In this document: positions 10,466-63,092 of the stretch, one piece after another
Layout: every line of letters starts with the position of its first letter
How positions within the stretch are numbered: the first letter of the stretch is position 1
NCBI GenBank assembly: GCA_002897115.2
Contig: BCIH01000005.1
Span: 1,245,980 to 1,309,979, forward strand
Origin: Prototheca cutis
Taxonomy: Eukaryota > Chlorophyta > Trebouxiophyceae > Chlorellales > Chlorellaceae
Length of the DNA stretch: 64,000 bases
Direction of reading: 5' to 3'
The notes under the pieces: model-generated
Told to the model about the DNA's origin: nothing
What the model saw: the letters and a program-made list of their open reading frames with translations, nothing else
The model's database searches: none
Program-made: the position numbers and the translations under genes

Positions 10466-11187
10466 CTACACGTCCCCAGCTTCCAGTCTCCGGTACCAGT
10501 CGTTTGCCCCATCACGCATGAAGCTGCGGAATGAGGGAAACTCGGGCTTCCAGCCACCAATCACGGCACGTGTGGCCGGATTTGTCATGCGTTTGCCCCG
10601 GCCCTGGCCTGCACTGCCCTCCAGGCGGACGGGGTCGTTTGGCTCGATCGGGCTGTAGCCCGCAGGGCTAGCCAGCGCTTCTTCCACTATCTCCTGGGGA
10701 CATAGGGTTTTTGAGTCTGATTTGTTGCTGCTTGTGCGATGTGCATTGAGGCATAACATTCTGGCCGGCTCGGGCAATAGGAGGAGATGTAGCATGGATC
10801 AACACACGTGTGCAGGCACAGGGCCCTGCAGATAAAACCTTGATATGTCAACAGACTGCTGGCACACCATGGCAAGCAAAATAAACAAGAAATCCCGGCA
10901 TGCCTGCAGCGTGAGTGGCCCATCGTCACAGCCAACGAGAACAGCACCGCGCGTAGCATCCGGCTGCATCAGCGCCTCCAGCGTCAGCCCCGCTGCGTCT
11001 TGGTAGTGCAGCAGGTTGATCAGCGCACCCCCCCAGCGGTCCACGGCTCCCCGCTTCTTGAGGTAAAATGTGTGCGGGCCCCTGAGGGGGGATCACAGAA
11101 GATGACCAATGTGCTGTCGAGACAGGTACCAGCGGCAAAGCATTCTGCTACCACCTCTCGCGGCAAGAAAAGGAACACATCATCATT

Positions 11188-11224
<37 letters not shown>

Positions 11225-12029
11225 CATCCTTGTCTGGAACACCACTTTGGATACACACAATTGCTCAGGGTCTGGAGATAAATAGCATCTGTATCTTTTC
11301 CCAGACGAGCAGCGCACCTGAGGGAGTGGTAGAGGCCGACTAATCGCAAGGCACAACCACCGACACGCCTGGCCTCCTCCTCGGCGAGAAGAAGCCTGTC
11401 CGTTCGGGCAGAATGGCCAAGCGCATGGCTCGGGGAGGTCTCGTCGGCAGGGGCACCGTCCTCCACATCGTAGAGCGCCGCACTGGAGGTGAACACCAGG
11501 CCACCGGTGCCGTCCCATCGAGCCGCTGCCCGCCGCACCTCGCCGGGGTAATCGGGGCTGGCAGATGGCGGTGCACAAAAGGCAACGTTGGCAAAGGATC
11601 TTTCTTCTGGCTGGCGGGGGGTGTCGATTGCCCAGGGTGTGATGCCCAGCCGCCGCAGCCTGCTTGGAGTTTTTTTGGTGAATGTCATGGGCGGTATATG
11701 GGCAATACTGGGGATGTTGTGGTTCACTAGGGCAAAATCCACAATTTCAAGGCATACCTGTCGTGGTGGGTGGTGGTCTGGGTGAGCCCTGTCACGGTGC
11801 CTGGGCCATGTGCGTCCAGCCAAAGCTTGCCCAGGTACTGGCCCAAAACCCCGGGACCCACAATCAGCAGATCTTGGGATGCATGTGGTGGTTCAATAGA
11901 CGAATAAACACGTTGATAGCGCCTTGATGGGGAGTGAACGCAGCCACGGCGTCTGGGCAGGCTGGGAGCAGTTAGCGCTGCGGAACCCAAGGTGGTGGCA
12001 TGGCGGCCGGGGCCCTGCACGCTCCTCAT
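10466..12029 (-). CDS. NAD(P)-binding Rossmann (extended SDR, YeeZ-like) protein, probably plastid-targeted, 4 exons
   Basis: Exons 12029-11758, 11659-11318, 11081-10904 and 10693-10466 give 339 residues with closed phases. The first 50 residues are rich in Arg, Ser, Thr and Ala without acidic residues near the start, as in chloroplast transit peptides; no in-frame Met lies closer to the domain. A Rossmann start follows (LLIVGPGVLGQYLGKLW, with GxxGxxG). Downstream are the SDR-like LVFTSSAALYD and the segment GPHTFYLKKRG...RWGGALINLLHYQDAA, the substrate-side motif of YeeZ-like NAD-dependent epimerase/dehydratases. The substrate is unknown. The third intron has a GC donor (LQ|GCATGC at 10903), and the second contains a GAT/ATC microsatellite. 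Confidence 0.8.
11178..11225. repeat. (ATC)n microsatellite in an intron
   Basis: About 15 near-perfect ATC units lie inside intron 2 of the SDR-like gene; the transcript strand reads (GAT)n. Confidence 0.9.
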
Positions 12030-12449
12030 TGCCCAAAATGTCTCGTTTCAGATCACATCCTTGCAATCATATACATGATAATGGCTGTCAAGAAAGAACA
12101 CATGGCAAAAGTGGTTGATCAGCTCGTGACATGGCAGGGTTTCGGAAGGACGATCTGCGAGTGNCCAATCATCATGGCAGATCCGATCCGTTCATCCGCC
12201 AATGAATGCCATGAGGATTGTGCCTCCGGCGTCGTGTGATTTGGTNTANTGATTCTGTGAAGCATTCGATGATGCAATGCACCTGCCATTTTAACNAACA
12301 TCCTATGGCATAGGGCGAGCGCGGGGGCGCCGCGACTACTGCCGCTGCTGTTCTTCGCATCATATTGGCCACCTGTTTNAGCGCTTCTGTCATTAGAGGA
12401 TGGCGGTAANTGTATGATGCATAGCATGCAAAGTATGCGNCACTCTGGA
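12030..12449. promoter_or_regulatory. Divergent promoter region, SDR-like gene / MurE homologue
   Basis: About 0.4 kb lies between two divergent genes that both appear plastid-targeted. It contains seven of a local cluster of isolated undetermined bases. No specific element was recognised. Confidence 0.4.
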
Positions 12450-15400
12450 ATGACGGCGTCGCACCGGGGGTCGACAGGGGCGCCGGGCCAGGTTCATAGG
12501 ACCGCCACCCGCGCCGTCCACCCCGCCGCCTGCTTTCGGGCTGCCAGAGCAGGCAGACCGCCGCGGCTCTCCATCNCAAGAACTGGNGACTNTCGCAATG
12601 GCGGACCGCGGTTCCAAAGACGAGAGTTTGTGGCGGTGAAAGCCATTTCTATGGAGCCAGGCAGNGACGACGATGATGGTGGGTTGGTATCTTGTTTGTT
12701 TGCTGAGCTGGCTTTTTTGGCTGCATTGCAACTCCGCGCTGCATGCGGGCGGCATGGAATGAGGGATTTGCAGGCCTGCCTAACGATCCTGGGCGTCCCA
12801 CTCCCACAGACGAGCTGGGGGGCGGCCCAGGGCGCCGAGGGGACGATGCCGGGGAGGATGGCCGCGACTTCAGAAACAAGAAGGCCGCCAGGCCGGCGGA
12901 CATGCTCAAGGATCTGGATGACGTAATTGCCCAAGCGATGAAGAGTGGGAGTGAGAGCGAGGAGGAACCAGGCAAGAAATGATGTGTGGGTGTAAGCCAG
13001 GGATCGGTGGGTCGTGACTGGGGAGATTGTTGGCAGGTGCTGAGGTCTCAAGGGACAGCTGTATGTGTGCTGTCTGAAGTTGCCTTGCGACTTGCAAGGG
13101 CACATTGGGTGTAGAACTGCCCGTTCTCTCGAAACCGCTGTTCCTTGCAGAAGAGCGCTCCACGCGTGCCCGCGCCGGCATCCAAGACCGCGAAACGGCG
13201 GCCGCCGGGCCTGGCGAAGAGGACGAGGTGCCAGAGTATCCCGAGCCCCCGCAGCGCAGCTGGCGCCTCGCGGATCTTTTGGAAGCTGCAGGCCTGGAAC
13301 TCGTTGGTGAATTCCCTGGCGATGGCCATTATTCAAACAATGGGATATCAGCAGTTATAGCCACTGGGCCTGCCTGTCCCGACCTGACCGTCCACGGCCT
13401 GATCACCTGCAACTCGCCCCGCGGCCTGCCCCAGTCGCTCTACATCTGCACCCCAGCCACGGACGGCGAAACGGATGGACACGATTTCACTGATCAGGCG
13501 GCCGAGGTTGGGGCCATTGCTGTGTTAGCAGAGCAGGGCCGGGAAGTCCCGCCCTGCAACATTCCCGTCCTCCGCTGCGTTGGTCTCCAGCAGGCGGTTG
13601 GCCGGCTGGCTGCTACGTTCTATGGTGGGTTTCGTTTCTTTTTTTTCTTTTTTTCTTTCCTTTTTGGGGGGGGGGGGGCGCGCCTGGGCCTGGGCCTGGG
13701 CCTGCATGTTTCTGTGAGGGAGAGCATGGGAGAAGAAACTCGTGATGATATCTGGGCCCAACAGCTGCATGCCAGCTGTCCACCACGCACCTCATCCCGA
13801 TGGCACGCAACAACACAGGCTTCCCTGCTCGCGACATGACGGTGGTGGGTGTCCTGGGATCCCACGGCAAGACCACTACGTCGTGGCTGCTCCGGGGCAT
13901 CATCGAAGAGACTGGGGCGCTGACGGGACTGTCTGGTGAGCCTGGAGAGAAGGGGCAGGGGCTCCCCCCACAAGCTGCAAAGAATGTAATAGACTGAAAA
14001 CACTTCACTCCCAACAACCGATCATCCAGGAACCATTGAGTACGCGCTTGCTGACACTCGGCTTGATGAGCAGGGCAACATTTGGGAGCCCGAGGAGGAA
14101 GATCCTTCTGCCGAAGTCGAGAGCACCTCCCCATTCCACCTCATGCCCTACCAGGGGCGATACGGGTGAGCGACCGGGTTATCCCCTTGTGTGTTTGTCG
14201 TGAGCAGGGGCTGTGAAAGAGGGAGGATGCCATGGGAGTGGCAGATGCTTAAAAGAACAAGTCACCCCTTCATGCCAAGTTGTTCCAGCAATCCCCTGCT
14301 TGTCCCCCAATGCACGGCCTGCAGGCAGCGGGAGACGACACCAGATCCGCTCCACCTTCAAATGCTTCTGGCCGGCATGCGGGACAGAGGCGCGACACAT
14401 GCGATCGTCGAGCTCTCGCTCGCTGCATTGATCAGGGACAGGTACAGGCTTGGGAGGACCGGAAACGTTGACGCCCTGCTTATCTGGACTGGCAGGGCAA
14501 GCTTAGCCCAGATGTGCTGGGTGGCAGTGCTTGTCGACTGGCAAGACTCCCCTGACCATCATCAAATGTCATACATGCACACACTCACGCTCGCCTGCGC
14601 CATTCCACAACTCACCAGGCTCGTGCGGGATTTGGATGCCGACATCCTCGTCTTCACCTGCTTCCTGGAAGACGATCTCCCTGCGGGGCTGGACCCTTCA
14701 CGCTGCCGTGACGCCGTGCTGCAAGCCTTTGCTGACTTGAGTCCCCAGGCCACTGCCATCGTCAACCTGCATGGTGTGTTAGGGTTTTCCCTTTTCTGTT
14801 TATTTTTTGGTTTGATTGGGGCTTTACCAGACTGCTTTCCCTAGCATTCCTCAGCTTAAAACTCAGTCACAACAAGAAAAACAAAAACAAAAAAAAGCTG
14901 CCACTGTCCTACTGCGCCAGACAACTTTGGGGCAGTGCTCGCAGAGGTGCTGAAGCCGCGAATCAAAGGCATGCCTCCTGCTGCTGCTCCGGATGCCGCG
15001 AAAGAAGGCGCGGTGGCAAAGGAGGAGGCGGACGAGGGAGACAGCTCGGCAGATGATGGCACCCCAGCCCCTGGAACTCCCGCCACACCACCTGGTCAGC
15101 CGACGCTGTTGACGTTTGGCACGCAGCTTCCGAGCAGGAGCAGCGCGCTGCCCCGGCCGCTGCCAGACGTGTTTGCCGAACGGGCAAAGTGGTCGATCTG
15201 GGAGAGCGAGGTCGTGCTCAACGCCCCTCAGGGCCGACTCCAGCTCATCCTGCCCCTGCTCAGCAGCGTCAACTTGGGCAACATGACTGCTGCGGCCAGC
15301 GTGGGCGTCGTGCTGGGCACGCCACTGGCCGATATCGTGGCGGGCATGAGCGCGGTGGACGTCATCCCCGGGCGGGGGGAGGTGCTGGATGAGGGCCAAG

Positions 15401-16735
15401 GGTTTTCCGTGGCCGTGGATGCCGCACGGTCGCCGGCCGCCGTGCGCCGGTTGCTGAGCTCGCTTCAGCACGTGGGTGCCAAGCGGGTGCTGGTCGTCGC
15501 GGGGGCGCGGGGGGACTCGACACGCGAGCAGCGAGCCGCACTGGGAGCGGCGCTGCACGATGGCGCGGACATGCTGTTCCTCACAAACGACAGCCCAGGC
15601 GCCGACTGGCCCGACCGCATCGTCGCCGATACGGTGGCCGGGTTTCCCCGGGAAATCAGGGACCGCAACCCCGGCGTGCCGTTCCCCTGGCTCCAGGACA
15701 AGCACCGTACGCCGCAGTGGTACCAAAAGTATCTGATACAGTACCAAGCTGAGATTGGGCGCTACATCATCGAGGACCGCTTTTCCGGTGCACACGATTG
15801 TTGTCGCCTGGTTGTTCAGAGTGCATTCTTGTCCCGCTGGAAGGCACAGTGTTGGCTTGAGAATGGGGGTGCAACCACCTGCTTCTGGCCCGGGCCATTT
15901 CATTGCCGAATGCTCACATCCCCCTCCCCCTCCCTACCCCAATAATAACAATGAACAGCTATTCGTGTGGCAATCGGCACTGCCCGGCCGCGGGACTTGG
16001 TGGTCGTTCTGGGCCGGGGGCATGAGGACTGCCAGGAAATCTGGAATGGCCGGGAACTGGGAGCGACGATGCAGGTGCGTCGCCGGTTGTCATGGGTCCG
16101 CTGCCGCCCATTTCAGGCTTTTGGTGCGATACGTTGCTTGAATTAGCATCTCATATGGTAGGGCAGTCCCCCCTCCCCACCCAAAACAAAAACAACGGTC
16201 AAGTACAAAAAAAATTGCCAACCCTCGTAGGGATGGTTTGACGACAGGCTGGAGTGCCGGGCGGCGCTAGCCAAGCTGCCCAAACTTAACCGGATCAAGG
16301 ACCTGGACCGCACGGTCCTGCCCTGGACCAGGCACGCCTGCTTGGAATCGTTTGGGTGTCATGGAGGAGTTTATGGCGACGCCTGTCGGGGCGGCAGTTC
16401 TTTCGCGATTCTTGGAATGGCCACACGAATTGCAGACGCTCCCCTCCCAACGCGAGTCGCAGCTGGGCGTGCATACCGGCCGCCTCTTCTGATGCACATG
16501 ATGCACAGTGGCGCTGTAGTGCACACCCAACCTGCCCTTGTTTCCATGCCCTTCCAGGTACATGGAGGACCGGGAGGGTATGGCTCCGATGGTGGCATAC
16601 GATGCCATCATGAGGCATATCAAGGAGCAGGGCATCAAGATCAAGCACGTGTTTGGACCAACGCCCGAGCTGGCGCAAAAGGCCGAAGAGCAGGAGGCCG
16701 CACAGGCGAACAGTGGGCAACCGAAGGGCTCCTGA
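12450..16735 (+). CDS. murE: Plastid-type MurE homologue (Mur ligase family), 11 exons
   Basis: Exons: 12450-12678, 12810-12971, 13151-13624, 13765-13935, 14030-14165, 14325-14441, 14619-14773, 14921-15787, 15959-16074, 16231-16331, 16558-16735; phase closes throughout, about 901 residues. The Arg/Ser/Ala-rich start looks like a transit peptide (Met 12414 is an alternative). An acidic segment (ADMLKDLDDVIAQAM) resembles the plant-specific N-terminal region of Arabidopsis MurE. Domains follow in MurE order: Mur-N (RLADLLEAAGL), P-loop GVLGSHGKTTTS, TTPDPLHLQMLL, and the C-terminal VVVLGRGHEDCQEIWNGRE and WFDDRLECRAAL. Bacterial MurE adds diaminopimelate to UDP-MurNAc-dipeptide; the Arabidopsis homologue instead supports plastid-encoded RNA polymerase activity. 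Several catalytic motifs are altered here, so a structural role is likelier. Introns 2 and 10 have GC donors. The last exon is a Glu/Ala-rich tail not typical of MurE. Confidence 0.9.
13669..13706. repeat. G tract followed by GGGCCT hexamer repeat in a MurE intron
   Basis: A poly-G run is followed by about four GGGCCT-type units inside intron 3. It also sits in a pyrimidine-rich to G-rich switch that may hamper sequencing. Confidence 0.7.
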
Positions 16736-16960
16736 TCTGCTGTGCTGCTGGCCGCTCCAGCAGGACCCACTCCGTCCTCCCCGTACGGAAACAGCATGGC
16801 TGAAAATTGTGACAATGCCCCGCGAAACTGAAATTCGGTATAACCAGAACTCCGGTATGCAAACATTCGTTCCCATTTCCGCAATCGAAAACATNAGAAG
16901 TCCTGCCTGGAGAGTATCCGATGATCTGAGGGAGCCCGAGCAGGTCTTTCGACGGCAGGG

Positions 16961-18461
16961 ATGGCTGAGGCCCAAGCCTCCGGCCAGCGGCAGCCGGTGC
17001 AGTGGAATGGCCCTGAAGCGGTGGAAACAGAAAAATCGGAGCTGGACATTGAGCGAGAGAAACATGCAAGGAGGTGCGCACGGGTCCTCGTCCGCGCCGT
17101 GCCCGGCCTGTCGCCCTGCATTGATGAGGGGTTGCGTGGAGTGTCTGCACCACGGCCACACTCCTGACGTGGGCATGCGCAGCCCAATCAGTGGCCGGGA
17201 CCTTGCATCGCACGCGTATCTTCTCTCCCAGCCACTGTGCACCTCCTGCCACCTCCAGGGCGGCCAAATTTGGGACGGAGTATGTGGAGCCGACAGCCCG
17301 ACGGGACCTGCGGCTGCAGAGCCGACGGGAGCGCCTCCAGCGACCTGGCTTTGCAACGGGCATCGACCTGTTCTCACCGGTGTGTAACTAGGAGGGGGAA
17401 GGGGGTGTGTCTGGCGAGAGTCAAGTTTTCCCCAGCTGACACAAGGTTTGGGGAGCGCCTCCCATGGTGTCCTTTGTCCACTCCAAAATCAGCACGCCAC
17501 ATCCCCATGCACACATCAGCAACTCCCCCACCTACAAACACACACTACCTTCCCAACCAAACAGGAGGAGATTGCCAAGTGCGAGGCTCGGGCCGCCAAG
17601 TTTGGTGCCACCGACGCCGCACTGAGCTGGGCCCCTCCCGAGGACCTTGCGAAGCGTGCGCAGCGTGCGGCTCGCTTCGGCACCGAGTTTGCCCCCGCGC
17701 AGGATGCGATGATGGACGTGGATCTGCTGGAATCGCGGCGTGAGCCATCGCTGAGTCACGCCCTGCGACCAGATGCTGTCTACGTCTATGGCGTTGACCT
17801 GCTATCCACAGCCGATGTGCTGCGTGTGTTTGGCGACTACGGGCCACGGTTTGTGGAGTGGATTAACGATTCCTCCTGCGTTGTGCTTTTTGCCGACGGA
17901 CCGGGCGCCAAGCGCGCCGTCGCCGGGTTGGGCCGGCCCCTGCCCCCAGACCCGGGGTCGGAGCTCCAGGGGTTGGACCCAGCGGACCCCTCCAACATGG
18001 AGTACATGTGGCATCAGGTTGTCATCGCTGGTGGGGCCGGCGACGAGCAGCAGCGGGGAACGGAGGCCAATGGCGCACTGCAAAACCCGCTGCTGCTGCG
18101 CATTGCGACGACGGAGGACGTGCGGGCCGAGGGCCGAGTCCAATCCCGGCGGCTCTGGCAGGACAGGGCCCACGGCAGCCGTGGCAGGGCGGCTGGGCGG
18201 CACAGGCGCCAGCGTCATGACGGGGATCAAGAAGCCATGGATGACGACGCGCAGGAAGGCGGCGATGCACGATCACGGGGACGAGGCTTGGGCGTCCGGC
18301 GGCAGGGCAAGACGAGGAAACCACGGCCAAACACCGAGGGTGCCATTTTACCGGGCCCGAATGCCCTCTTCAAACGGGCGTTGGGAGAAGTGGTTGCCAG
18401 CGCACCGGGCCAGGAAACAGAGTTGGGCACGAGGCAAGCCGTCAACTATGCTGACCTGTGA
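16961..18461 (+). CDS. NCBP3: NCBP3-like nuclear cap-binding subunit, 3 exons
   Basis: Exons 16961-17073, 17259-17379 and 17565-18461 give 376 residues with closed phases. The order matches animal NCBP3 (C17orf85): an acidic N-terminus, the TGID block (FATGIDLFSPEEIAKCEARA), two AAKFGT-type repeats, then the RRM-like core (AVYVYGVDLLSTADVLRVF, FVEWINDSSCVVLFAD) and a later LLLRIATTEDVRAEG strand. NCBP3 binds capped RNA with NCBP1 and acts in mRNA export. The C-terminal third is basic and low-complexity (Arg, Gly, His), with the NCBP3-like KRALGE near the end. The start is the first in-frame Met, only 225 bases after the MurE stop. It is shorter than the human protein (about 620 residues). Confidence 0.82.
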
Positions 18462-19349: not shown

Positions 19350-19408
<59 letters not shown>

Positions 19409-28562: not shown

Positions 28563-31500
28563 CTAGCTGTCAACCTTGATGCTGTCGACGATGGCCTCTG
28601 CCAAGTATGCGGCCTTGGCACGGTTCAGGCCCGCCAGACTGATGCGGCCGTCCTTGGTCATAAACACCTTCCACTGCAGTATGGGTGGGGTTGGTGGGTG
28701 GGTGGGCGGTGCAGGGGGATCGACGATGATCTCAAGGGCGTTGCCATGACCATTGCGCTCGTGACATGCCCTTTACGAGCAGGCACAACAGTCGACGCCA
28801 CGGAATCTACACCCCAGCGTCTCACCTTGTTGGTCATGTTCTCCACCTGCTTGGCGGTCAAACCAGTGAAGGAGAACATACCGATCTGCAAGAGGGTGTG
28901 TGGCGGGGGAGTGGCAGGTAGGAAACAGTCACAGGGCCTTTGCAGAACGTCCCCCTCTAAAATATCATCAGAAGTCGTTCCAACCCACAGCAAAGGGCAT
29001 GCACGCTGGTCCAAAAGCCCGGCACTCAATGCAGGTTGTTCAAAAATCCCCCAGCAACACTCGCCTGGTTGGTGACAAAGCTCCAGTCGCGGCTGGGCTC
29101 CAGCTGGGTCAGGTGGTCAAACAGATCCTTCCTCACCGTCTGCAGTCATTTGGGCGGTGGGTGGGAGTGAGGAGGAACCCCGTCCTTGGATGTGTGTGTT
29201 GGGGACTGACAGGTCATCACCGTTGTCGCCGTTTCATAACGACCAATGCAGCAATCTCCCCACTCAACACCGAGTGCCGCCTCACCTTGATGCGGCCAGA
29301 CATCATTTCCATCTCGGCCTTCCACTCGTCAAACAGCTGGTCGTCGCCGACCACCTCTGCCACGATCCTCGCGCCGTGCACCGGCGGGTTGGAGTAGATG
29401 GCTCTGTCGGGAGNGGAGAAGGNTTTTTTTTGGAATACCTCTTTTTTGGCGGCCCGGGGGGGGGCCCTTGATGCCAGCCATACACTTCTGCACCACAGGT
29501 TTCACCAGTTGCCATTGGCAGGGACAAAGCTTCCCACCCACTCAAAGGAGTCAACATCACACACGCCTTGCGATGCGCTTGAGTTGGGACAGCACACGCT
29601 TGGCAGCCTCCGCGTCCTTGAGGACAAAGTTGATAGCACCGATGCGCTCCGCATACAAGCCCAGATTCTTGCTGTACGACTGCGTGAATGTCAAGGGGGG
29701 CCCGGGTGGGAGGAAAATGTGCGTGGGGGGGTGAATGACGGTCGTTGGCACGATGGCAACAGCACTCGCAAGCAATTGCACCCGACACCACACCTGCGCC
29801 ACCATAATCTCCAGCCCGCGCTCCGCAAAGTAACGTGGAGCGTACGCGTCCTCATCCAAGCTGCCGCTCGCAAAGCCCTGTGCATGATGCAATGATGACT
29901 CGTATGCTTATTGGTATTCTGGCGTCAAGTATGTGTGGTGGGTGCCATGCCCGCTGCGTCGACCCGCCCCACCACAGCCAAGGCCTCCTTTCCACCAGCA
30001 ACAACAAACTCGCCTGGTAGGCCACGTCGAAGAAAGCAAAGTGGTTGTTTTCTTCAATGACGTCAGCAATCCTCGCCCACTGCTCCTTCGTGGGGTCGAT
30101 GCCCGTGGGGTTGTGTGCGCAGCCTGCGTAAGATATTTACAAAGCCAGGCACTTTTTCGTTGCATCTAGATTGACCGCTCGATCGTTAGGTCCCCGGGAC
30201 CGACTGGTGTGCACTGCTGCCCTTTCCGCTCCCTGGCCCACCCACGCCCTCGGCGACACCCCACCCCACCCCGGCATCTACCCAGTCACTGGCCCGTCAC
30301 AGCAACGTTCAAAATCCACTCACCATGCAGGACAATCACGGAACCCTCGGGGGCGGCCTTGATGTCGGCAATCATCTTCTCAAAGTCCAGGCCAATGGTT
30401 GCAGGATTAAAGTAGCCATACTCCCGCCACTCCACACCTGATCATATTGTGGAGGAAGGTGGGTTTGTGTGAGAGAAAAGGAGTTTGCTCGAGTGTGTCC
30501 GACTTTCTTTAGACCACGGGCTCTCATGAAAACCACCCCTCCCCCTTCAAACGTCCTGGGCCCCAATTCAGTCCCGCACCGGCATCAGCAAAGATGTTCT
30601 TGTGGTTGCCCCAGGTGGGCTTGGAGATGTAGGCCACTGCCCCGGGCATGAACTTGGCGATGAAGGCCGCCCCTACCCGCAGGCTCCCGGTCCCAGACAG
30701 CGACTGCAGCGTCGCCACGCGGCCCTGTGCACATCGTGTCGGTGGAGAAGGTTTGAGATTGTTGGAGAGTATGGCACTAGCGCCTTGGGTTCCGCGCTGA
30801 TACTGAAGGTTTTGGTGAGGAGCGAAACGTCCGCTTTTTCCACTTTCCCACGTCTTATCCCCGGCATCCCAACCCTTTCCTCAACAACATGTACACACAC
30901 CTCCTTGACAGCAGCGCTGTCCTTGCCCAGCAGCAGGTCGACGGTAGCCGTGCGGAAGCCGGCCAGACCTTCGATGGGCAGGTACTCCTTGTTGTCCCCT
31001 CGCTCCAGCATGCGCCGCTCAGCCTGCACAGCGTTTGGAGGAGTCGAGGAGTGGTGCTGACAGGGAGGGAATCTTGGGAAAGCAAACGAGCAAGTACACA
31101 GAGCGCTTGCCCTTGCCTCCCCGCGCACTGTCACTGCCAGAAAAACCGCGCACACACTTGCCTTGTGAACGACATCCAGCACATAAGGCTTGAGCTCCTC
31201 CGTGCGGTAGGCACCCACCTGCCCATCGTTTTTTGTCAGAAATGCAGGTAAAGCGTGAGCATTCTGGGGTTGGGGCGAAGCATCGCATTCTTCCTAGTTG
31301 TCTAGAGGGGTCCCTCGCCTGCAGTCCCCATGTCTGCACCACAACCAGCAACGGACCCCGAGATTCAGTTTGTCCGGAGAAGTCTCGCGGCGGAAGGCCT
31401 CCGACACACCAAGGACTGCACAGTTGCAGTGAAGGAGCATGAGCGGCATGCGGTGGTAAGCGGAATTGGTAGTGTTCCGATCCGGTCTCATGCCTGGTGG

Positions 31501-49387: not shown

Positions 49388-52300
49388 TCATCCATGCAGT
49401 GGATCATCTGGCCTTGAGCTCTTAAACATGCCCTGCAGCTGTGCCTGGCTGAGCGGGAGGGTGAAACCTGGGTACCAGTTCTGAAGCTGGCGCGGAATGC
49501 GCTCCCACCGGGACAGGCAGATGCCTTCCAGCCTGCATGGTCGATCGTCGAGGGGAGTGAATTGTGGGATTTTTCTGTTAATGGAATGCAGGTTCTGCAG
49601 CGGCGCATACGCCTGTCCAAACCATCACATCAGCCTCTGCACACACGCACCGTTGCCATATGCGGCCGACCAGCTCCGGGCTGCTCCCCGCAAAATGCTT
49701 CCCCAGTCGCTGAGACACGGCCACCAGCTTCTTGCTCAAGCTGTGCGTACAGGAACTGCAGAGAGGGGGGTATGGGTAAGGATTATCCGCACCCGGAACG
49801 ATGCCAGAAGGGGCAGGCTTTGGTTGTGCAGCGTGGGGCCATCCGAGGATCCACGCACACATGCAGGCAGTCCCACAATTCATCTGGACACGCACAATCA
49901 ATCTCGCGGTGAGGGAGCACTGACAAGCACCAGACATCATTACTCCTGCAATCGTTCCACTCACTCGAACAGTGCAACGGCGTCCTGCTGGCTAATGGGT
50001 GCCGGGCCCTTTGGCGGGCCTGGCTGCTCCGTAAGATCATCCAGTTTCTACAGGAAATGGCCTTGATGCTGCGGATCTGTAGCGCGCATCCCAAAGGCCT
50101 TCTCCCCCCCAAAACAAGCCCTTTCATTGGTTGACAGCAAAATAAATTTCCACTAGAACCCTCGACAGTCGCCCAACCACCTACCCTGCTGAGGGCGAGA
50201 ACAGCGCCAAACCCGAAATAATCCACTTGCTGCTCGATGTACGTGGCCTCTGCCCGGAAGCTGGCCGTGTTCAGCCTTTCCAGCTCCTCAGCCGCCACGA
50301 CATCTCCCCGCGGCTGTTGTGATGGCAAGGGGTGGCACAGGGGGCTTACACCACGGTCCTGAAGCAGGACGCCCTGCTCGACAATGGGGCNACGAGGGCT
50401 CTGCAGAACAAGCAAGCATGCTTGTCGCCGAGCTCTGCATCACCCCCCATGGCCACAGCACTCATGTTCCGCAGTTCCCACAGACCACCCCCAAATCTCC
50501 AGACCTGGAATGTCCGCTGCAGCAAGATGTAGTTCTCCAGTCGGATGCGGGGCCCATGCTTTTCGTCCCTGGCAGCAACGTCCTCCACGGAAGCCAGCAG
50601 CGCCGCCAACACTGCCGTGAAGATCTTCCGGCCCAGCGTCCTGCACAAAGAGGGGTACTTGCATGCTGAGGAATCTGGATGGTCCAAAACGTTGCATCAG
50701 CATGTTTTCTTTCTTCCAAAAAGGTGTTTCTCGTGATGTTTGACCGGCACAGGAACACTTGCCCGGCCTGGGAAGCGCCCGTGGCCACTGACTGTGCCAC
50801 CGGCTCATCTCTCCCCGTTGCAGGGCCGGGCGCTCCGAAGGGCGAGGGTCGCGGCACACCCCGGCCGCCCGAGGGTGGCTTGGGCCCCGATCCCGCGCGA
50901 AAGGCTGAGGGCCCCAGGCACGCTTCCACCTCCACCACGGCCCGGAGGAAGGGGGGCACAAAGGGGAACACGTGCGTTGTCTTGACCGCGCTGCCGCTCA
51001 GCGAACTCGTCGACCGCTGCAGCGCATACCTGCATCCATTTTGAGGGAAGAAGGATGCATGCGTTCTGGATACAAACGCATGTTTGCATGTTCATGTAGA
51101 AGGTTTTGGATGACAGCGTCCGCCGCAATAGGGGCTGTCTACCCGGCTGCCTGGCCAGCAAGCTCTCCCATCCGCAGGAGAAGCCCCAGAACCTCAGTCA
51201 GCCAGCCAGCCACCATTCAGCAACAGCAGCAGCAAGACCCCATGGTCACCAAACCAGAACGCACTTTTGAATGGCGGCGGTGAGCTCGTTGGCGTAGCCC
51301 TGCAAAACTTCCTGCAGCGCTGTTCCGAGTCGTTTCAACATGGCCTGCAGTGCCTCCACCGTGGCGCCCGAGCCAGCCTCCGCCGTTAACCGGGCTTGCC
51401 AGCCCAACACAGCAGCCAGGGCAGGCACCGCTGACAGTGCACCCAGTCCAGCAATCTCCCCAACCTGTGTTGGGAAGAAGAAATTGCGAGCATGGTTGGG
51501 TGGGGCAAACAAAGACGGAATTGATTCAGCGATGCCATGTGCCGGGGCTGTCGTCGCATCTGCACCGCATCCCGAGCGCCGCCCACTCCATCCCCAAAGA
51601 AAAACCCTCCCGAGCGCTGACCCCCCACCCCGCCTCCGCACCAGGGCTTGAAGCTTGGCCGAGACACCCCGGACAAACAGCTGCACGAGGTCTGCGTCGG
51701 GCTTGTCTAGTGCCACTTTTTCTCCCTTTCCTCNCAGGGCAATGAGTTCGCAGGACAGCTGTGCCTCCCGCCGCACCAGCGGCACTGCCGCATCCAGCGC
51801 CTGCCTGCAGGTAGAGTTTGTCTTAGGGATATTTTTGGCTCGGGCGCATGTGACATGGGTTTTAAAGGACAGGCCGCGCGGTGCCTATCAACCACAGCCA
51901 TGCATGAAACGATATGATCCACGGAGTAGGCACCAACGAAATCTCCTGTCCCACCACCTGCCCCATGCTCACGCACCCCATGCAGGAGCCAAGCTGCGGC
52001 ACAAATGCCGGGGGCGATTTGGCCGTCATTGGCCCAGCCGAGTCGGAGCCGGCCGTGAAGGAGGAGCTCACCAACCTCGCATTTCCACTGCACAGCGTGG
52101 TGATACAGAGCGAGCCAGGGGCTGGTGAGACAATCTCCATCAGTGCAAGGTCTGCTGCTCGTGACATACAGCAAACTACCGTGCACATGCCGGGATCGGG
52201 CCGTTGCATGGAGCTCGGCCGGCTACAGCCCACCACACAGTCCGCTTCTTCTTCCACACACGCTTCCTCATGACCATCAAAGACATACATCCCTGCCAAC

Positions 52301-55356: not shown

Positions 55357-55930
55357 GGTGGCGGACAGGGCCGGGACAAGTCCCCACACACGTCCCACAA
55401 AGTGATCCTGGAGAGCGTCCCTACGCCCCGCTCATCCGTCCGACCACTGACAGAGAGCCGTGTCACGTCCTCTGTTCTCTTCAATGCATTGTAAACCTAG
55501 AATTGAAATAATCTACGGCTTTTGGTCTCCTGATCACTGCTGTGGCTTGACGGCCGGACGATGTTTCTGTGAGTCTCTCGGATTCCATGGGGGGAGTTGG
55601 CAACAGTCCCATTCGGCAATGGCCAATGTGCCATCAATAAGACCAAGGACGCCCGTGATGACGAGGCCACAGTGCCCCAAGTGCGTTCCAAAGTTACCAA
55701 GCATGTTTGTTGGATAAACAAATCCTCGTGATGCGGGTGCGATAAGAAACTGACGGCTGCATAGATGGAGCGGGCCCCAGGGCAGGAACGGAGCCAAGCT
55801 GGGCGTCAGCTTGCCCACCTTTTGCACCGGACACTCAAGGCATGGAGGGCCGGGAACATGCATTATCGTATGTATTGTAGCCTTGGGCTTGACCCTGCTT
55901 CGATTATCGGTGCCAAATCACGCCCCAGCA
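55357..55930. promoter_or_regulatory. Divergent promoter region, SEC3 / LSm protein
   Basis: About 0.57 kb lies between divergent starts. No specific element recognised. The LSm frame is open upstream to 55811, so its start could be earlier. Confidence 0.4.
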
Positions 55931-56647
55931 ATGAAGCCCCCTCGATCCCAAACCCACTATTTTTGCCAGGTGCACCTCGACGATGGCAGGGTGCTGATAG
56001 GGGAGCTCACCTGCCTTGACCCCCAGGCCAACATCATCCTTGGCGACGTTTGTGAAGAAGTCGACGGCACACCCGCCGAGTGCGTGGGATGGCAGGGTGA
56101 TGGCAGAGGCTCTGCACAAGCTTGTGTTCAGCCTGTTCTGTGTGTGCACCCGGTGCTTGTGCATCCTTCCCCTGATTCGCACTGGCCGCATGAACATGGC
56201 ATCTGCGGGCAATCCCCCACGTGCACTCGCACATCGTTTGGGCACATGGATGACAACGTAACCTTACCCAAACCCTGAACCCCCCCCACAATGATCCCAG
56301 GAACGTTCCACGGGCAATGGGACAGATAATCATCCCGGCCGACAAGCGCACCGCTGTCTATGTCCAGGTGCGGCGGCAGAGCTTGTGTCTGTTTAGTTGC
56401 TTCTGTGAGGGACCGTTTACTGTCTCCCTGGCAGGTCCAATGGGCGATGACGACAGTTTGAACCTCGTGTACTGGTGTCCCCAGCACCATCTCCATGACA
56501 CACAAGCCGATGGAGTGATACCCCCTCTTTCTCATGCACCACACCACGCTCCCTTACATGGCATGGCCCATATGACACCAGCAGGCAACTGCCTCGGAAG
56601 CAACAGAGCTGACCAGGATGCTCGAGAAGTGCCAGTCTCAGACCTAG
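55931..56647 (+). CDS. Small LSm-domain protein (NAA38/LSMD1-like), 3 exons
   Basis: Exons 55931-56079, 56301-56367 and 56609-56647 give 84 residues with closed phases. Sm motif 1 is clear: VHLDDGRVLIGELTCLDPQA followed by NIILGDVCEEV. Sm motif 2 is RAMGQIIIPADKRTAVYV. The proximity of the two motifs and the overall size fit single-Sm proteins such as NAA38, an auxiliary subunit of the NatC N-terminal acetyltransferase; an LSm1/LSm-like RNA role cannot be excluded. The last 13-codon exon (LTRMLEKCQSQT) is the weakest part, since its acceptor (CAGAG) is chosen by phase. Met 55931 was preferred to Met 55811 because the extension is hydrophobic and unlike the family. Confidence 0.65.
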
Positions 56648-57320
56648 GGCGGGCAACCGCAGCACGGGAGCCGGCTGCGTGCGGCGGTCGTCATCTCGCT
56701 GGTGCGTGGCAGTGGTCAGGCCCCCCCAGAGCAGTCCCGCAGCGTCTTCAAGGGCGGGGAAGCAAAGGAGCGACCAAGTCTGGCCAGGACATGTTGGAGA
56801 GCAGTATAAGGAAGGAAGGATGCAGGAGAGCTGACTGAGTGGTGCTCCAAGGCAGTGCAGGACAAGCAGGCGGCATACAGAGCAGTGAAGTCAACAGGGA
56901 AACAAGCAGGCAGGTGGGCTGGTACTTTTCGAGGGGCCAGGGCCCCACATGTGTCTGGCCATCGCCGTGCCAAGAACCTTGTACAGAAAAAGCGAGAAGA
57001 ATCCACCGATGAGCGGGTTTGCCCCTTTGCGGGGCAGGTCACGAGCATTCCTAGGCATCCCCCATTGCTGGCAGGACACGCACAGTTTTTTTTAACTTTC
57101 CGGGCAAGAGAAGAGCGAGAGGGTTGTAGTTTTGAGAGGCGAAGGTGTGTGTGCGTGCCGGGGAGGGGATTGGAGATGAAGGGGCAGCGAGACGGAAGGT
57201 GGAGGGTCGCGATGGCATGCGGCAGTATAAAGATGCCAGCCGCTCGGGTTCCTCCCACGCACCCCACCTCCATGTCAGCTCCCCCATTCATATGCCACCC
57301 CCTCTTTTCCCACAAGAATC
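56648..57320. other. Convergent 3' intergenic region
   Basis: It lies between the 3' ends of the LSm and DUF707 A genes. Long open frames exist on both strands because stops are rare at this composition, but none has splice or family support. Confidence 0.45.
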
Positions 57321-59103
57321 TCAGTTGTCCTTGCCCTTGCGGCGGCGGCGGACAAAGCGCAGGGCCAGCACCAGGAGGCAGGCGGCCCCCGCGAGCGCCT
57401 GAAGCCCCAGGAGCACGGGGAACCAGGGCCCCAGCCGTGCCCGAACGGCTCGGTCCAGCCTTTCCAACGACCCTTGCCACGCGTCGACGTCCACCGCCCC
57501 CAGCTCCTGCACCGGATAAAACGGGTACCCCAGTCGCCGCACCGCCGCGCGCGTGTACCCAAACTGGGCCTCACGCCGCGCCTCCTCCACGCGCTGGTCG
57601 TACGGTGCGCCCGACGCGTAGATCGACTTTCCCGCTTTCTTCTTCTCGGGGTGCACCATGCACACCTCGTCCAGCACCGCGATGCGGTCCGTCGGGTACT
57701 TGAGCAGGAATGGCCACACAAAGTCCAGGCCCCACCCTGCGCGTCATTGTCATAATTGGGTGCTGGATGTCTGGTTCTGGTGGGCCTGGGGTTCTTGGCC
57801 TTCATTGTCGGGGGAAAGGGAGATTTTACCTGGGTCAACCGTCGACCAGCCCCCCCCCCCCCAACCACCACCACCAAAAAACTCACCGGAGTAGGAGTCG
57901 TAGAAAGTGGGAACGACAAATTCGTCGTAAAAGCCGTCGCGAGTGGTGAAGATGGGGGCCATGATCTCCACAAATGTCACATACCGCAGCACGTGCTCCC
58001 GCTGCTGGTACATCATGCGCCACCACGACCACGAGCCCTTTGTGTCACACAGGCTCATCTGCGCCAGCCACAGCCCGTAGCGGTCAAACGTCTCGAACGC
58101 ACGGTTGATGTCGCACGTCGACATGACCAGGTCGTCGTCAGCCGTCATGATGGCCTTGTACCCGGCCGTCAGATCCTTCCACTCGGGCAGCTGGTGCAGC
58201 GAGTAAAACAGCCGATACTTTTGGGCCTTGCCGTGGAACACCTTTCTGCAGTCTGGGCACTCGAAATACCCGTTGTCACCAAAGTAGACGGCAATAACGT
58301 CGAAATTTGCCCACTTGGCTTGATTCAGCCAGCTGTGTGTGTGGAATTGGGGAGGACCCTCCATGTGAGAGCCTTGTTGAAACATGGGCAGCGGCTCTGG
58401 GGTCAGATCACGCGCAGTTGACATGCCAGAGCTCTGCCGGGTAACGTCCACCGCAGAGCTCTTGTCGCGGCCTCGCATATCCCAGGACACAGGCACCGGA
58501 ACCATCGGATGCAGGTCCTCAACAGGCAGGGCTTTTGCACCGACGACCCCACCTACCCACCGACTCCCGCCAACGCACCTGACTGGTGTGGCTGTGTCGC
58601 CGACTGCAACCAGGACGAGATACTCCTTCTTGGGAGGTCGGACCTTGAGCAGCTCGCACTCGCCGTCGACCAGGGTCGTGGTGGATTGCCAGACGTCCGA
58701 GCCCATGGCCATCCAGGACATCCAGCCCCCGGCAGGGCGGGTTGCATTGGCCACCTGTCCCGTGCTATTCCCGCTGCCATGCACGTACTTGGCCTGCCAT
58801 TCGAACAATGAAGTCGTCATGTTGGCGAAGTTGGGGTCCAGGCGCTGCCTCCGTCTCGCCCGCAGGCGCTCCGCCCGTCGGGTTGCACGGTCCTTGGCCT
58901 CGTCCGACCCTGCAGGACCACTCCAAGAAAATGGGCCCCGTCAATTTGAAGGGAGTCGAGTCCTAGGCCGTCATGGAATGCAATGCCGTGCACATACACG
59001 TCATACACATACCATTTGAGGTTGTATTGCCCGACGCTGCGTTGCAGACGAGCAGCAGACACAACGCAGCGCCCAGCACCAGCAGACGCGGTGAGCGGGC
59101 CAT
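57321..59103 (-). CDS. DUF707 protein A: secretory, type I membrane, glycosyltransferase-like, 4 exons
   Basis: Exons 59103-59013, 58909-58579, 58332-57887 and 57736-57321 give 427 residues with closed phases. Exon 1 is a signal peptide (SPRLLVLGAALCLLLVCNA). A strongly basic segment follows (ATRRAERLRARRRQR). The DUF707 core is EYLVLVAVGDTA, WANFDVIAVYFGDNGYFEC, MTADDDLVMST with a DXD-like acidic triplet, VEIMAPIFTTRDGFYDEF, and WGLDFVWPFLLKYP leading to IAVLDEVCMVHP. A C-terminal membrane helix (LLGLQALAGAACLLVLALRF) ends in a basic RRRRKGKDN tail, so the catalytic-like domain would face the lumen. Plant DUF707 proteins are uncharacterised; a glycosyltransferase role is inference from the DXD-like motif and topology. 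Its paralogue is the divergent gene starting at 60346. Confidence 0.9.
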
Positions 59104-60345
59104 CAAATCATCCTACGCGCCGCCCGCCCTCATGCGTGATGCTGCACCTGCTTAAACGTCCTTAACAGTGAACACATGGCCAATAAAAGTTGCGATGGCC
59201 TGGAGTCAAACCGGCTTGCCGAGGTGATCCTTGCCGCGAGCTCGTATGGAAGCCCCACTCCATCCACGTGGGGGTCCACATGCTGTCCACGGCGCGGGTG
59301 GGCGTGTGTGTGTCGGGGCTCTACCCTCGTCTCCCCAGCAATGCTGTAGTATTCATTGTGGCCCCAGGCAGACCCTTTTTCCTGTCATTGCCCCTTGAGA
59401 GAGTGTGAATGACGGCGGGGTTCGCAGCAGCACGAGCATGGGGAGCAATCGGAAGCCACGTAGCAGTATAAGGTTTCAACGACGTTTATCAACTGGGCTA
59501 CGAAGAACGAGCAGCTTGCTTCGTTGCTGCGCAATGCTGCAATTCCTCACAGTGTAATCAGTCTTCAAAGGCACAATTCATCCGTATGAGAGCAGCGTAT
59601 CAGCATTGCCGGCTGCTGCGCCCTGCGTGGCGTGCTCTGGGGCTCGGTCTGGCCATGCGCCGGTTGAAGTGCGCCCCCGCCGCACCCGCCCACACCGCTG
59701 GTCTCGGCGTAAGGAGGATGCATTCCAGCAACCATGTCCCAACTCTTGCGAAAGAATCACAAAGCCGTCAATGAACTTGGACAGTCTCAGTTCAGAGGGC
59801 CGAAACAGCTAGCGTCTGTGCAAAGGGCTGAGCACTTTGGGGTTACCGGCCGCATTTGGGCTGCATTCCTGGCCCTACAAGTCTGTTTTTTACACATCGG
59901 CATGCATCCCGCTGTAATGCAGCAGCTGCACGGAGGTTTGCTGTGAGAACAGGGTGTCCATGTGGGGTGCACTCCAACCGTGCTGCGTGCGCTGAATTCA
60001 AACAGCTGGGGAAGATGCTCGTCCAAAAAGTGTCTGCAGTAAGGTTTGACATGCAGCAATGAACCTGTCTCACAACATCTGTTATTGCTGTGNCGGGCAT
60101 TCTGGGTTGGGAATTGGAAGCGGGCGGAAGGCCAGGGTCCCCCTTCTACCACGTGGGCTCCACGTGCAAACTTCAACCACAAGGCCACCTCGTTCGGGCA
60201 GGCTCGAACTCCTGGGAAACACTGCTCTGCGCTCTTATGGGACTGTTTAACCTCTTATCACTACTGTAATGATGGTATATCCCTGCACAGTCGTTGCTGA
60301 GCTGTTGTGACGCGCCCTGGCGCTGTTTCGACACCCTGGCCTGAC
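59104..60345. promoter_or_regulatory. 1.2 kb region between the divergent DUF707 paralogues
   Basis: It is the shared upstream region of the two paralogues. No convincing gene was found. TATA-like AGTATAAG near 59465-59472 is the only core-promoter-like string noticed, and is weak. Confidence 0.4.
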
Positions 60346-60957
60346 ATGGGTTGGGGTGCAACACAGCCCAGCTTCCCGGGGAGGCGCGTGGTGACCCTCC
60401 TGGTATTCCTCTCCATGCACCTCATACCTGGAGTGCAAGGTGTGCATTTCATTGTTGCGTTGCATGGCACTGGCGCCGCGTGCACGGGGTGCTTCAGGTT
60501 AAGGAGCGTGAGGCTTCGAGGGAACTCCCTATCCACCAGACCCACCGGGGCAGGGGTGCAGGCAGGGGCTCCACATCGCGCCACCGCCGGCCCCCCTGCC
60601 GCAGGTGGCATCAACCTTGAAGCCCTGCAGGACCTGCCACCAGCCAAGGACTGGACGTACAACCGCAGTGCCATCCACCAGCAGGTGGACGTGTACAATC
60701 GCCGCTTTGCACGTCCTGCCGCCGGTGACCTTACCAGCGGGGCCCTCCGGGCCCCCGAGCGCCTCCTTAAGCGGCGCAACCTGCTAGTGGTCGTCGGAGG
60801 CGACAACTATGACTGCACGAAATGGATGGATGCGGGAACACCACGCAACTGGGATCTGATCTGGATCTACTATGGGGTTGACAAGAACCTCACTTGCCCC
60901 GAATGTCTCAAGGCCTGTGGCATATGATGATGCTGTTGCGTGTTTGGGGCATGCAGG

Positions 60958-61013
<56 letters not shown>

Positions 61014-63092
61014 ATGGCTCCAGCTTTTCATGAACCAGTGTCACTCACCGCCTACGGCAGGTGTACCGGGCACGGGGTCCCAAGTGGCGGCTGGCTTGGC
61101 GCCTCACGCTGCTCTCGGAGTGGCAAAACCTGACGCACGTCTATGACGGTACCCTTTTTTTGTTGTGTGCAGGGTCGTTGTCGTGATGGGAGTATGGGCA
61201 AGAAATGCTGATGTCCAGCGCGAAAGGGGCGGTGTATGTTGCGTTCAGCAGGTTTTGCAATGGCCAGTGGCAAGCTGCTGAGGTTGTGCGTGGGCCATGG
61301 GCGGTGGCCATGCCTCCAAAACTCCCTGCAACTTGTGAACCAATCAAAACTCTGGTTCAACACCGCCGCAGCCATCGGATTCTGGGACGATGACCTCATC
61401 GTTCGAGATGGTACCGTCATCAACACCGTGTTTGATCGGTTCCACGAGTTTGGCCTTCTCATGGGCCAACCCAGCATCTGCAGAACGCACTGGTGAGTAT
61501 GAATGGAGCAAGGTCTTAGGGGCCGTTGTTGTCCCGGCCTGTTGCAGGCACGTGACTGCTGCTAGCGCCGGTCTCACCATCCTCGGCGCCTGCATGCCCC
61601 TTGTCCTGCCCGGGGCAGGCAAAAGGGCACATTGCCTGACGCAAGGGACACATGGGCACCATCATAGGAGATTCGCTGTGGTCCACGAATCGCTTCCAAC
61701 CCCGTCCCAAGCAACCATGGCCCCCCCCACACCCCTTCCAAGGTCCTGGACGCCATACGATGCGTTGTTTCAACGGAGTGATAACGTGCTTCGGTATACC
61801 AATCACGTGGAGATCATGGCACCTGTGTTTGACATGTCCTTTTTTGATGCCATGATCCGGCCCACCCTGTACAACACACACTACGGGTAAGGTGGTATTG
61901 GGTTGGGGCAGGACGGTTTTGTCCCGGGGGGGTATGGGCTTGGAGAGTTTCATCCGGATGTCTGCTAGGGACAGGTGGGGCATGCAGTGCGCGGCGAGCA
62001 TCCCCCCTCCCCCAAAAAACGAGCGCGACCCTCCCCAGTTACCACGCCTCCCCTCACTTGCTTGGAACCGATAACAGGTGGGGCCTCGACTTTGTGTGGC
62101 CGTTCCTGATGCACTATCCGCCGAACAAGATTGGGGTGATCGACGAGGTCTGTGTCTTTCACCCACCAACATCCCGTGCCAAGGGAAACACTCTCTACCA
62201 CGTTGGTGGGTTGAGTTGGCGGTGGGGCAGGGGTAGGGAATCCGAGGGAGAGGATACAGATGAGGGGTTAGAGAAGCCATGCCATGCCGGGGTTGTTTTC
62301 CAGGGTTGGAGTTCCGAGCCATGGCTGCACATGGTCTGGGCTGTCATTCCAGCACCTGATGCCTCAACCCCTCCCCCCATCCTCACCCACAATGCAGTGG
62401 CGCCGTATTCGGCCAAGCAGGAGGAGCAAGTCCGGTTCAGGGAGTGGGGCTTTACTACCGCCAAGAGAATGAAGCTGGTACGGATGTTGGGCAGCGTGAC
62501 GGTGTGCGCTGCTGGGGAATCGGGGACCTGCATTACCGTGCCTGGTTCCCGCTGCACAGGCAGAGTGCACCCGTAGAACCAATGTGGCATGCCAGAGCAT
62601 GGAAATTGATCGACTTCCTGCATTGTTTCTACCCCAGGGCTGGTCTGACTGGAACTGTGATGTCATCCAGGCGGTGCCCAGGACATCCACCTTCCAAGCC
62701 GGCCATGCCGGTGGCGCACTCCTGCAGTCGGTGAGGAGGCTGGGTGTGTTGGGTTGGGCAGGTGGCCCGTGATCCATGGGCACAGCTTTTGGTCCCTGTT
62801 GAAAGCACATCCGGCAGTCGGGCTTCACAAGCACGGCCTAGAATCCGCCTTGCACGTTGGCGTGCAGCGCTGACCTATGGAAGGACAGCAATCCTGGCTC
62901 ACGTTTGCATCACACCACGACTTCCCATTCCGACAGGCTTGGACCCAGGGCGGCACNTGGTGGCTGCTTCTTGCCTTTAACGCCGGCGTCTGCTTCGTGA
63001 TTGTCAAGGCGGTGGTGGCCTATCGGTCGCGCCGGGGCCGAAACGGTTCCCTGCTCTCAAGGGAACCGCGGTATGCCCATGCACGGTTCTGA
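60346..63092 (+). CDS. DUF707 protein B: secretory, type I membrane paralogue, 9 exons
   Basis: Exons 60346-60439, 60605-60912, 61061-61148, 61372-61492, 61743-61886, 62078-62205, 62398-62477, 62638-62730 and 62937-63092 give 403 residues with closed phases. Exon 1 encodes a signal peptide (VVTLLVFLSMHLIPGVQG). The core parallels protein A in order: NLLVVVGGDNYDCTKW, NWDLIWIYYGVDKN, CPECLK, LSEWQNLTHVYD, GFWDDDLIV with the acidic triplet, VEIMAPVFDMSFFDAM, and WGLDFVWPFLMHYPPNK to GVIDEVCVFHP. The C-terminus is a membrane helix (WWLLLAFNAGVCFVIVKAVV) and a basic tail. It has eight introns against three in A. Intron 2 has a GC donor (CTCAAG|GCCTGT) and a long TG repeat. The undetermined base at 62957 falls in a Thr codon. 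Confidence 0.9.
60959..61011. repeat. (TG)n dinucleotide repeat in DUF707 B intron 2
   Basis: About 26 TG units on the sense strand start 46 bases after the GC 5' splice site. Confidence 0.95.

What the first reader, a model, noticed from the sequence alone, without database searches (positions are those of the whole stretch)
10466..63092. Unusually high share of GC-AG introns
Protein similarity and reading phase force a GC 5' splice site in at least eight introns: donors at 10903, 12972, 16332, 29064, 29566, 30013, 31161 and 60913. About 77 introns were reconstructed outside SEC3, so the share is roughly 10%, against about 1% in most eukaryotes. In several, the bases around the donor are strong (CAG or AAG before GCAAGT or GCGAGT), as expected when U1 must tolerate the mismatch. 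No alternative GT keeps the conserved protein in frame.
Basis: partly seen in the sequence, partly recalled or inferred. Interest (0 to 1): 0.8.

Follow-up and report, generated by a model that had tools for sequence, protein, structure and literature searches.

The report
Many GC-AG introns, green alga
About one intron in ten in this green alga's DNA appears to start with GC instead of the usual GT, mostly where the neighbouring bases already fit the splicing machinery well; this resembles other GC-rich algae and is uncommon but not new.

Summary
An intron/exon HMM that started with no preference among the 16 donor dinucleotides, run on 314 kb of the same assembly (window plus samples of six other contigs), converged on GT 383, GC 45 and seven other listed dinucleotides with 1-12 each. 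The final decode gives 49 GC of 462 (10.6%, CI 8.1-13.7%); sites with drop test above 3 nats give 26 of 279 (9.3%). Simulations with ~1% GC returned 2 GC calls each, of 377 and 379. All eight named donors are recovered; seven have protein support, 12972 has none.

The organism is a green alga of the Auxenochlorella/Prototheca group. The only U1 gene found has the standard 5' end. GC share climbs with U1 complementarity of the other seven positions: 4 of 145 at three matches, 11 of 20 at six; a no-compensation simulation stays near 10%. I read it as GC-directed mutation tolerated by a normal spliceosome where flanks are strong.

It is a new member of a known kind: published shares are 7.7% (Chlorella sp.), 22.2% (Micromonas pusilla), 39.6% (Aureococcus), 56% (curated Emiliania junctions). 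No transcripts were available.

The parts
10694..10903 (-). GC-AG intron, donor CAG|GCATGC, in an NAD(P)-binding (EMB2799/CPLD52-like by the names of its homologues) protein gene
   Evidence: HMM drop test 3.9 nats; ungapped at the junction against 4 of 5 homologues aligned, among them Auxenochlorella P0121; the Chlorella variabilis model P0136 has 3 extra residues there
12972..13150 (+). GC-AG intron, donor CAG|GCAAGA, N-terminal part of a MurE-like gene
   Evidence: HMM drop test 4.7 nats; no protein support, region not conserved
16332..16557 (+). GC-AG intron, donor CAG|GCACGC, C-terminal part of the MurE-like gene
   Evidence: HMM drop test 3.7 nats; ungapped LPWTR|Y against A. protothecoides P0178
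28563..31884 (-). aspartate aminotransferase gene, 13 predicted introns of which 4 are GC-AG
   Evidence: 82% identical to Auxenochlorella protothecoides, 79% to Prototheca wickerhamii; decoded ab initio; Pfam Aminotran_1_2 297.1 bits with GC donors, 259.6 with GT-only model
28886..29064 (-). GC-AG intron, donor CAG|GCGAGT
   Evidence: drop test 7.1 nats; 118 of 120 homologues ungapped
29404..29566 (-). GC-AG intron, donor AAG|GCGTGT
   Evidence: drop test 4.2 nats; 120 of 120 homologues ungapped
29878..30013 (-). GC-AG intron, donor CAG|GCGAGT
   Evidence: drop test 4.9 nats; 120 of 120 homologues ungapped
31024..31161 (-). GC-AG intron, donor AAG|GCAAGT
   Evidence: drop test 3.5 nats; 119 of 120 homologues ungapped
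   Evidence: HMM drop test 4.3 nats; no protein check made
50641..50762 (-). additional predicted GC-AG intron, donor CGG|GCAAGT, in the same gene
   Evidence: HMM drop test 3.2 nats; no protein check made
60913..61060 (+). GC-AG intron, donor AAG|GCCTGT
   Evidence: HMM drop test 4.0 nats; junction lies inside an ungapped 76-residue alignment to the paralogue at 57321-59103

Best explanation
These are ordinary U2-type introns whose +2 base has drifted from T to C under GC-directed mutation (or biased gene conversion) in a 61% G+C genome. The spliceosome looks standard: the one U1 gene found begins AUACUUACCUG, and U6 ACAGAGA and U5 CUUUUAC are standard. A GC donor costs one U1 pair (A-C mismatch at +2), so it persists mainly where the other U1-pairing positions are strong. 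With six of seven other Watson-Crick matches, GC:GT is 11:9, about the C:T ratio after G inside introns (1.15), which looks close to neutral. With three matches it is 4:141, which implies purifying selection. Shown here by computation: the share, the flank dependence, the standard snRNAs. Inferred: that these sites are spliced in vivo, the mutational direction, and the U1-stability mechanism.
For: EM from an uninformative start: GT 383, GC 45, seven other listed dinucleotides 49 together and at most 12 each. An earlier EM with one shared flank model: GT 404, GC 45, 20 others of 469. Simulation controls: planted 3 of 419 and 7 of 407 gave 2 and 2 GC calls; planted 29 of 419 and 48 of 407 gave 25 and 38. 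GT-only decoding is 140 nats worse. Flanks, GC (n=49) vs GT (n=413): A at -2 78% vs 57%, A at +3 51% vs 17%, C at +4 8% vs 33%, G at +5 94% vs 81%. GC share at 5 or more Watson-Crick matches 24 of 82 vs 25 of 380 below, Fisher p 8e-8; a flank model trained on GT sites gives a like rise, 6 of 149 at three matches to 11 of 20 at six. Null simulation with identical flanks: called GC share 9 to 10% at 2-5 matches, 10 of 67 at 6. C:T after G in introns 1.15. snRNAs.
Against: No transcript data. The share falls with a stricter drop test: 19 of 228 above 4 nats, 9 of 168 above 5; GC sites start with a nine-fold lower prior, which lowers their drop values. Real DNA gave more stray dinucleotides (49) than the simulations, so some GC calls may be noise, and the simulations, drawn from the model itself, are idealised. 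By RNAduplex energy instead of match counts the gradient is not monotone: 13 of 39 in the strongest bin, 3 of 51 in the next. Flank-blind decoding showed no rise with match number, and a fall in one setting, but it cannot place donors. GC content alone does not predict the share in published algae (Micromonas RCC299, 64.1% G+C, 2.7%). The negative coupling of exon and intron halves among GT donors is not explained by this model alone.
Confidence: 0.78

Rival explanations
1. Detuning: full-length U1 pairing is selected against (too stable to hand over to U6), so donors with strong exon and intron halves are pushed from GT to GC to weaken U1 binding. GC is then favoured, not just tolerated.
For: Among GT donors MAG and RAGT avoid each other: MAG in 2 of 30 RAGT donors vs 151 of 383 others (p 1e-4), rank correlation of halves -0.27. 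Null simulation gives 67 of 169 and -0.03. In MAG|RAGT contexts GC outnumbers GT 8 to 2. Against the tool's reversed-pattern control MAGGTAAGT is scarce genome-wide (46 vs 271) and MAGGCAAGT common (366 vs 144).
Against: 8:2 is not clearly different from the neutral 1.15:1 ratio with ten sites. The reversed control is a poor one because TA is rare: against Markov expectation scaled from the sample, MAGGTAAGT (46; 35-73) and MAGGTRAGT (314; 256-388) are not depleted. Anti-correlated exon and intron halves are a described feature of donors elsewhere (PMC11732430, passages).
Confidence: 0.12
2. A changed trans-acting factor (U1 modification, U1C, PRP8 or another spliceosomal protein) makes this lineage tolerate GC, much as Iwata and Gotoh suggested (U1 modification or U1 snRNP proteins) for Aureococcus and M. 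pusilla.
For: GC content alone does not explain the spread of shares among algae.
Against: Only one U1 gene found, with a standard 5' end; U5 and U6 standard. GC is rare in weak flanks, which a general relaxation would not predict. The candidate proteins were not examined.
Confidence: 0.06
3. Artefact: sequencing or assembly errors, or gene-model errors; the true donors are GT.
For: The window has 36 N bases; in-frame GT alternatives exist for some introns; one HMM GC call in the window (donor 11368) is contradicted by homologues, and a CAG|GTGCGC donor lies downstream.
Against: Errors would not choose GC over GA or GG, nor strong flanks; simulations with ~1% GC yield 2 GC calls each; conserved proteins run ungapped through the GC junctions; profile scores fall with GT-only models in the 3 pairs tested, of 35 genes with GC calls.
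Confidence: 0.03
4. GC donors mark regulated alternative splicing, as argued for mammals.
For: Published association in animals (PMC2490688, abstract); nearby in-frame GT sites exist.
Against: Ten percent of introns, four in one housekeeping enzyme gene, seems too many and too ordinary for that; the alternatives would insert residues into conserved cores.
Confidence: 0.01

Closest known systems
High GC-AG share in GC-rich algae (Iwata and Gotoh 2011, PMC3033335; passages read)
   Same: High share in GC-rich genomes: Aureococcus 39.6%, Micromonas pusilla 22.2%, Chlorella sp. 7.7%; U1 5' end canonical in the three species they checked
   Different: Different lineage member; here the share is tied quantitatively to flank strength, and no transcripts were used
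Emiliania huxleyi GC-AG introns (PMC4028052; passages read)
   Same: GC-rich alga with very many GC-AG junctions, AG acceptor unchanged; there some were verified by RT-PCR and sequencing
   Different: There GC is the majority donor (56% of 241 curated junctions); here about 10%
Ordinary low-frequency GC-AG introns of plants, animals and fungi (PMC6310983, PMC7072748; passages read)
   Same: Same U2-type donor with C at +2
   Different: About 1.2% in plants; here eight to nine times that
Two 5' splice site classes with anti-correlated exon and intron halves (PMC11732430; passages read)
   Same: GT donors here show the same anti-correlation
   Different: GC donors here do not show it (n = 49, low power); the term GC-AG does not occur in that text; donors here also lack the +4A preference

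Membership tests
U2-type GC-AG intron | GC at intron +1,+2 with AG at the end, forced by reading frame and protein | tested here: met
   for seven of the eight named introns; not shown by protein for 12972
U2-type GC-AG intron | U2-type donor flanks pairing with U1 (MAG|GCRAGT-like) | tested here: met
U2-type GC-AG intron | Junction seen in spliced RNA | not testable with these tools
   no reads or cDNA of this species held
U12-type intron | ATATCC-type donor consensus (as stated in PMC3033335) | tested here: not met
   G at +5 in 94% of the 49 GC donors, MAG-rich exon ends
GC-rich algal genome with elevated GC-AG share | Share several times the ~1% norm | tested here: met
   49 of 462; 26 of 279 above 3 nats; 9 of 168 above 5 nats
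GC-rich algal genome with elevated GC-AG share | High genomic G+C | tested here: met
   61.4% in 314 kb
GC-rich algal genome with elevated GC-AG share | Standard U1 5' end | tested here: met
   one U1 gene found, AUACUUACCUG

The most novel reading that the evidence does not exclude
In this alga U1 pairing strength is held in a window: donors that pair fully with U1 are avoided with GT, and a C at +2 is the favoured way to detune an otherwise over-strong site, so GC introns are an adaptive answer to excessive U1 stability rather than decayed GT introns.
Probability: 0.12. Interest if true: 0.7.

Novelty: new member of a known kind. Interest (0 to 1): 0.4.

Why it matters
Gene finders that allow only GT donors would probably misplace about one junction in ten here, adding or dropping a few residues or splitting genes. 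The steep dependence of GC share on flank strength, in a compact intron-rich genome with one detected U1 gene, makes mutation-selection models of donor sites directly testable. It adds the Auxenochlorella/Prototheca group to the GC-rich algae with raised GC-AG share.

Tried and rejected
Flank-blind decoding: with flat flanks the model cannot place donors (17 or 92 GC depending on the prior) and showed no rise of GC share with match number, in one setting a fall; the null simulations replaced it. Whole-genome word counts, hits vs the tool's reversed control: MAGGCAAGT 366 vs 144, MAGGTAAGT 46 vs 271, MAGGGAAGT 211 vs 212, MAGGAAAGT 173 vs 264, MAGGTRAGT 314 vs 485, MTGGTRAGT 435 vs 320, MAGGCRAGT 649 vs 315, MTGGCRAGT 650 vs 261. 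The scarcity of MAGGTAAGT first looked like avoidance, but TA is rare and the Markov expectation is 35-73, so I dropped that claim; MAGGCAAGT (expected 290-434) and MAGGCRAGT (574-789) are near expectation too. In the window MAGGCRWGT has 9 matches, 5.6 expected, and 12 of 100 shuffles reach that: word counts alone do not show GC donors. A Pfam-only approach to the 35 genes with GC calls was cut short: 3 GC/GT-only pairs and 3 single proteins were scanned; two further pairs prepared were not. A PDB search with an unspliced piece of the aminotransferase found nothing. Loss of METTL16 as a cause of the weak +4A preference: a PF05971 match is present (that PF05971 is the METTL16 domain is recalled, and orthology was not tested), so not pursued. 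Variant U1/U5/U6: rejected. HMM call 11082-11368 as a GC intron: rejected by homologues. The other GC calls with a drop test below 3 nats (23 of 49 with that one) should be treated as unproven. Naming the species: size 19.89 Mb and 61% G+C fit Prototheca cutis (20.0 Mb, 60.3%, PMC5772498), not proven.

Searches for prior reports in this lineage; in the listings shown I saw no paper on the GC-AG share of Prototheca or Auxenochlorella. Lists were capped (20 of 86, 283 and 267) and most listed papers were not opened.
Full report
Place and organism. The window is G000:C5:1245980-1309979 of a 19.89-Mb assembly in 23 contigs. The aspartate aminotransferase in it is 82% identical to Auxenochlorella protothecoides and 79% to Prototheca wickerhamii, so this is a green alga of that group. 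Size and G+C resemble Prototheca cutis as published (PMC5772498, passages), which I did not prove.

Observation. All eight GC donors are at the stated bases. The aminotransferase gene (minus strand) reads through four of them into conserved protein. I then built a two-strand intron/exon HMM (codon usage, donor, acceptor; no homology) and trained it on 314 kb: the window, C1:400001-600000, and 10 kb each from C2, C3, C4, C6 and C8. A first EM with GT favoured gave 404 GT, 45 GC and 20 others of 469. A second EM that began with all 16 donor dinucleotides equally likely gave 383 GT and 45 GC; the other dinucleotides listed were AG 12, AA 10, CA 10, GG 9, AC 5, CT 2, TG 1. GC thus stands well above any other non-GT dinucleotide, but the strays are not negligible. 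The final decode, GT and GC allowed, gave 415 GT and 49 GC, or 413 and 49 after dropping two sites with N: 10.6%, 95% interval 8.1 to 13.7%.

Controls. On HMM-simulated sequence of about the same size with planted GC of 3 of 419 and 7 of 407, the same EM called 2 and 2; with 29 of 419 and 48 of 407 it called 25 and 38. Sites whose removal costs more than 3 nats: 26 GC of 279, 9.3%; more than 4: 19 of 228; more than 5: 9 of 168, 5.4%. GC sites carry a nine-fold lower prior, which lowers their drop values. Forbidding GC altogether costs 140 nats. These tests argue that the share is not created by the method, though single low-scoring calls can be wrong: one window call, donor 11368, would delete a stretch present in all five homologues aligned, and a CAG|GTGCGC donor lies a little downstream.

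Protein evidence. In 120 aminotransferase homologues, the 8 residues on each side of the four GC junctions are ungapped in 119, 120, 120 and 118. For three of the 35 genes with GC calls I compared the GC-allowing and GT-only models against Pfam: 159 vs 150.6 bits (kinase, C1), 261.7 vs 256.6 (DHDPS, C1), 297.1 vs 259.6 (aminotransferase). A TACO1/YebC gene kept its GC site even in the GT-only decode. Donor 16332 is ungapped against A. protothecoides, 10903 against 4 of 5 homologues including an Auxenochlorella one, and 60913 against its paralogue; 12972 has no such support.

How it works. The only U1 gene the search found starts AUACUUACCUG; U6 and U5 carry the standard pairing sequences. GC donors differ from GT donors in having A at -2 (78 vs 57%), A at +3 (51 vs 17%), A or T rather than C at +4, and G at +5 (94 vs 81%); acceptors are alike and introns slightly shorter (median 148 vs 174, p 0.05). 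Counting Watson-Crick matches to U1 at the seven positions other than +1,+2, the GC share is 0 of 2, 0 of 12, 3 of 54, 4 of 145, 18 of 167, 12 of 61, 11 of 20 and 1 of 1 from zero to seven matches. A flank model trained on GT donors gives 0 of 2, 2 of 14, 3 of 50, 6 of 149, 15 of 161, 12 of 61, 11 of 20 and 1 of 1. A simulation with 10% GC and GT-like flanks gives 0 of 3, 2 of 44, 20 of 223, 38 of 430, 46 of 490, 25 of 249, 10 of 67 and 1 of 4, so detection bias does not make the trend. Inside introns C follows G 1.15 times as often as T does; at six matches GC:GT is 11:9. I infer mutation-selection balance with selection fading as the rest of the duplex strengthens. Using RNAduplex energies the trend is weaker and not monotone, which I count against the simplest form of the model.

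An open point. GT donors with RAGT avoid MAG (2 of 30 vs 151 of 383), and the halves are anti-correlated (-0.27); the null simulation shows neither (67 of 169; -0.03). Anti-correlated halves are described for metazoans and for intron-rich fungi (PMC11732430, passages; that the latter are fungi is my reading of the passage). GC donors do not show it (0.06, n = 49), and take 8 of the 10 MAG|RAGT sites. Whether GC is merely tolerated or actively favoured there cannot be settled with ten sites.

Known context. GC-AG averages 1.2% in plants (PMC6310983, passages). Iwata and Gotoh (PMC3033335, passages) already reported 39.6% in Aureococcus, 22.2% in M. pusilla and 7.7% in a Chlorella, linked it to G+C, found canonical U1 ends in the three algae they checked, and called the origin an enigma. 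Emiliania reaches 56% of 241 curated junctions, nine GC ones verified by RT-PCR and Sanger sequencing (PMC4028052, passages). The finding is a real, well-supported new member of that known kind.

Noticed in passing
window 57321-59103 (-) and 59917-63092 (+): Two neighbouring paralogues on opposite strands; 34% identical over 76 residues. The plus-strand HMM model looks incomplete downstream.
   Followed up: partly
window 12651-16735 (+): Nuclear MurE-like (Mur ligase) gene in an alga related to non-photosynthetic Prototheca; 54% identical over 92% to an A. protothecoides protein.
   Followed up: partly
window near 10903 vs protein P0136: The public Chlorella variabilis model of the 10466-12289 gene has a 3-residue insertion at the junction where this alga uses a GC donor; possibly a GT-forced gene model there.
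   Followed up: no
314-kb sample, GT donors: Donors here are weakly U1-like: GTGCGT is the commonest hexamer (44 of 413) and +4 has no A preference (25% A, 33% C), although a PF05971 (METTL16-type, label recalled) gene is present at G000:C2:120213-121148.
   Followed up: partly
window 19351-19406 and 60959-61011: Perfect CA and TG dinucleotide tracts (28 and 26.5 copies) inside predicted introns.
   Followed up: no
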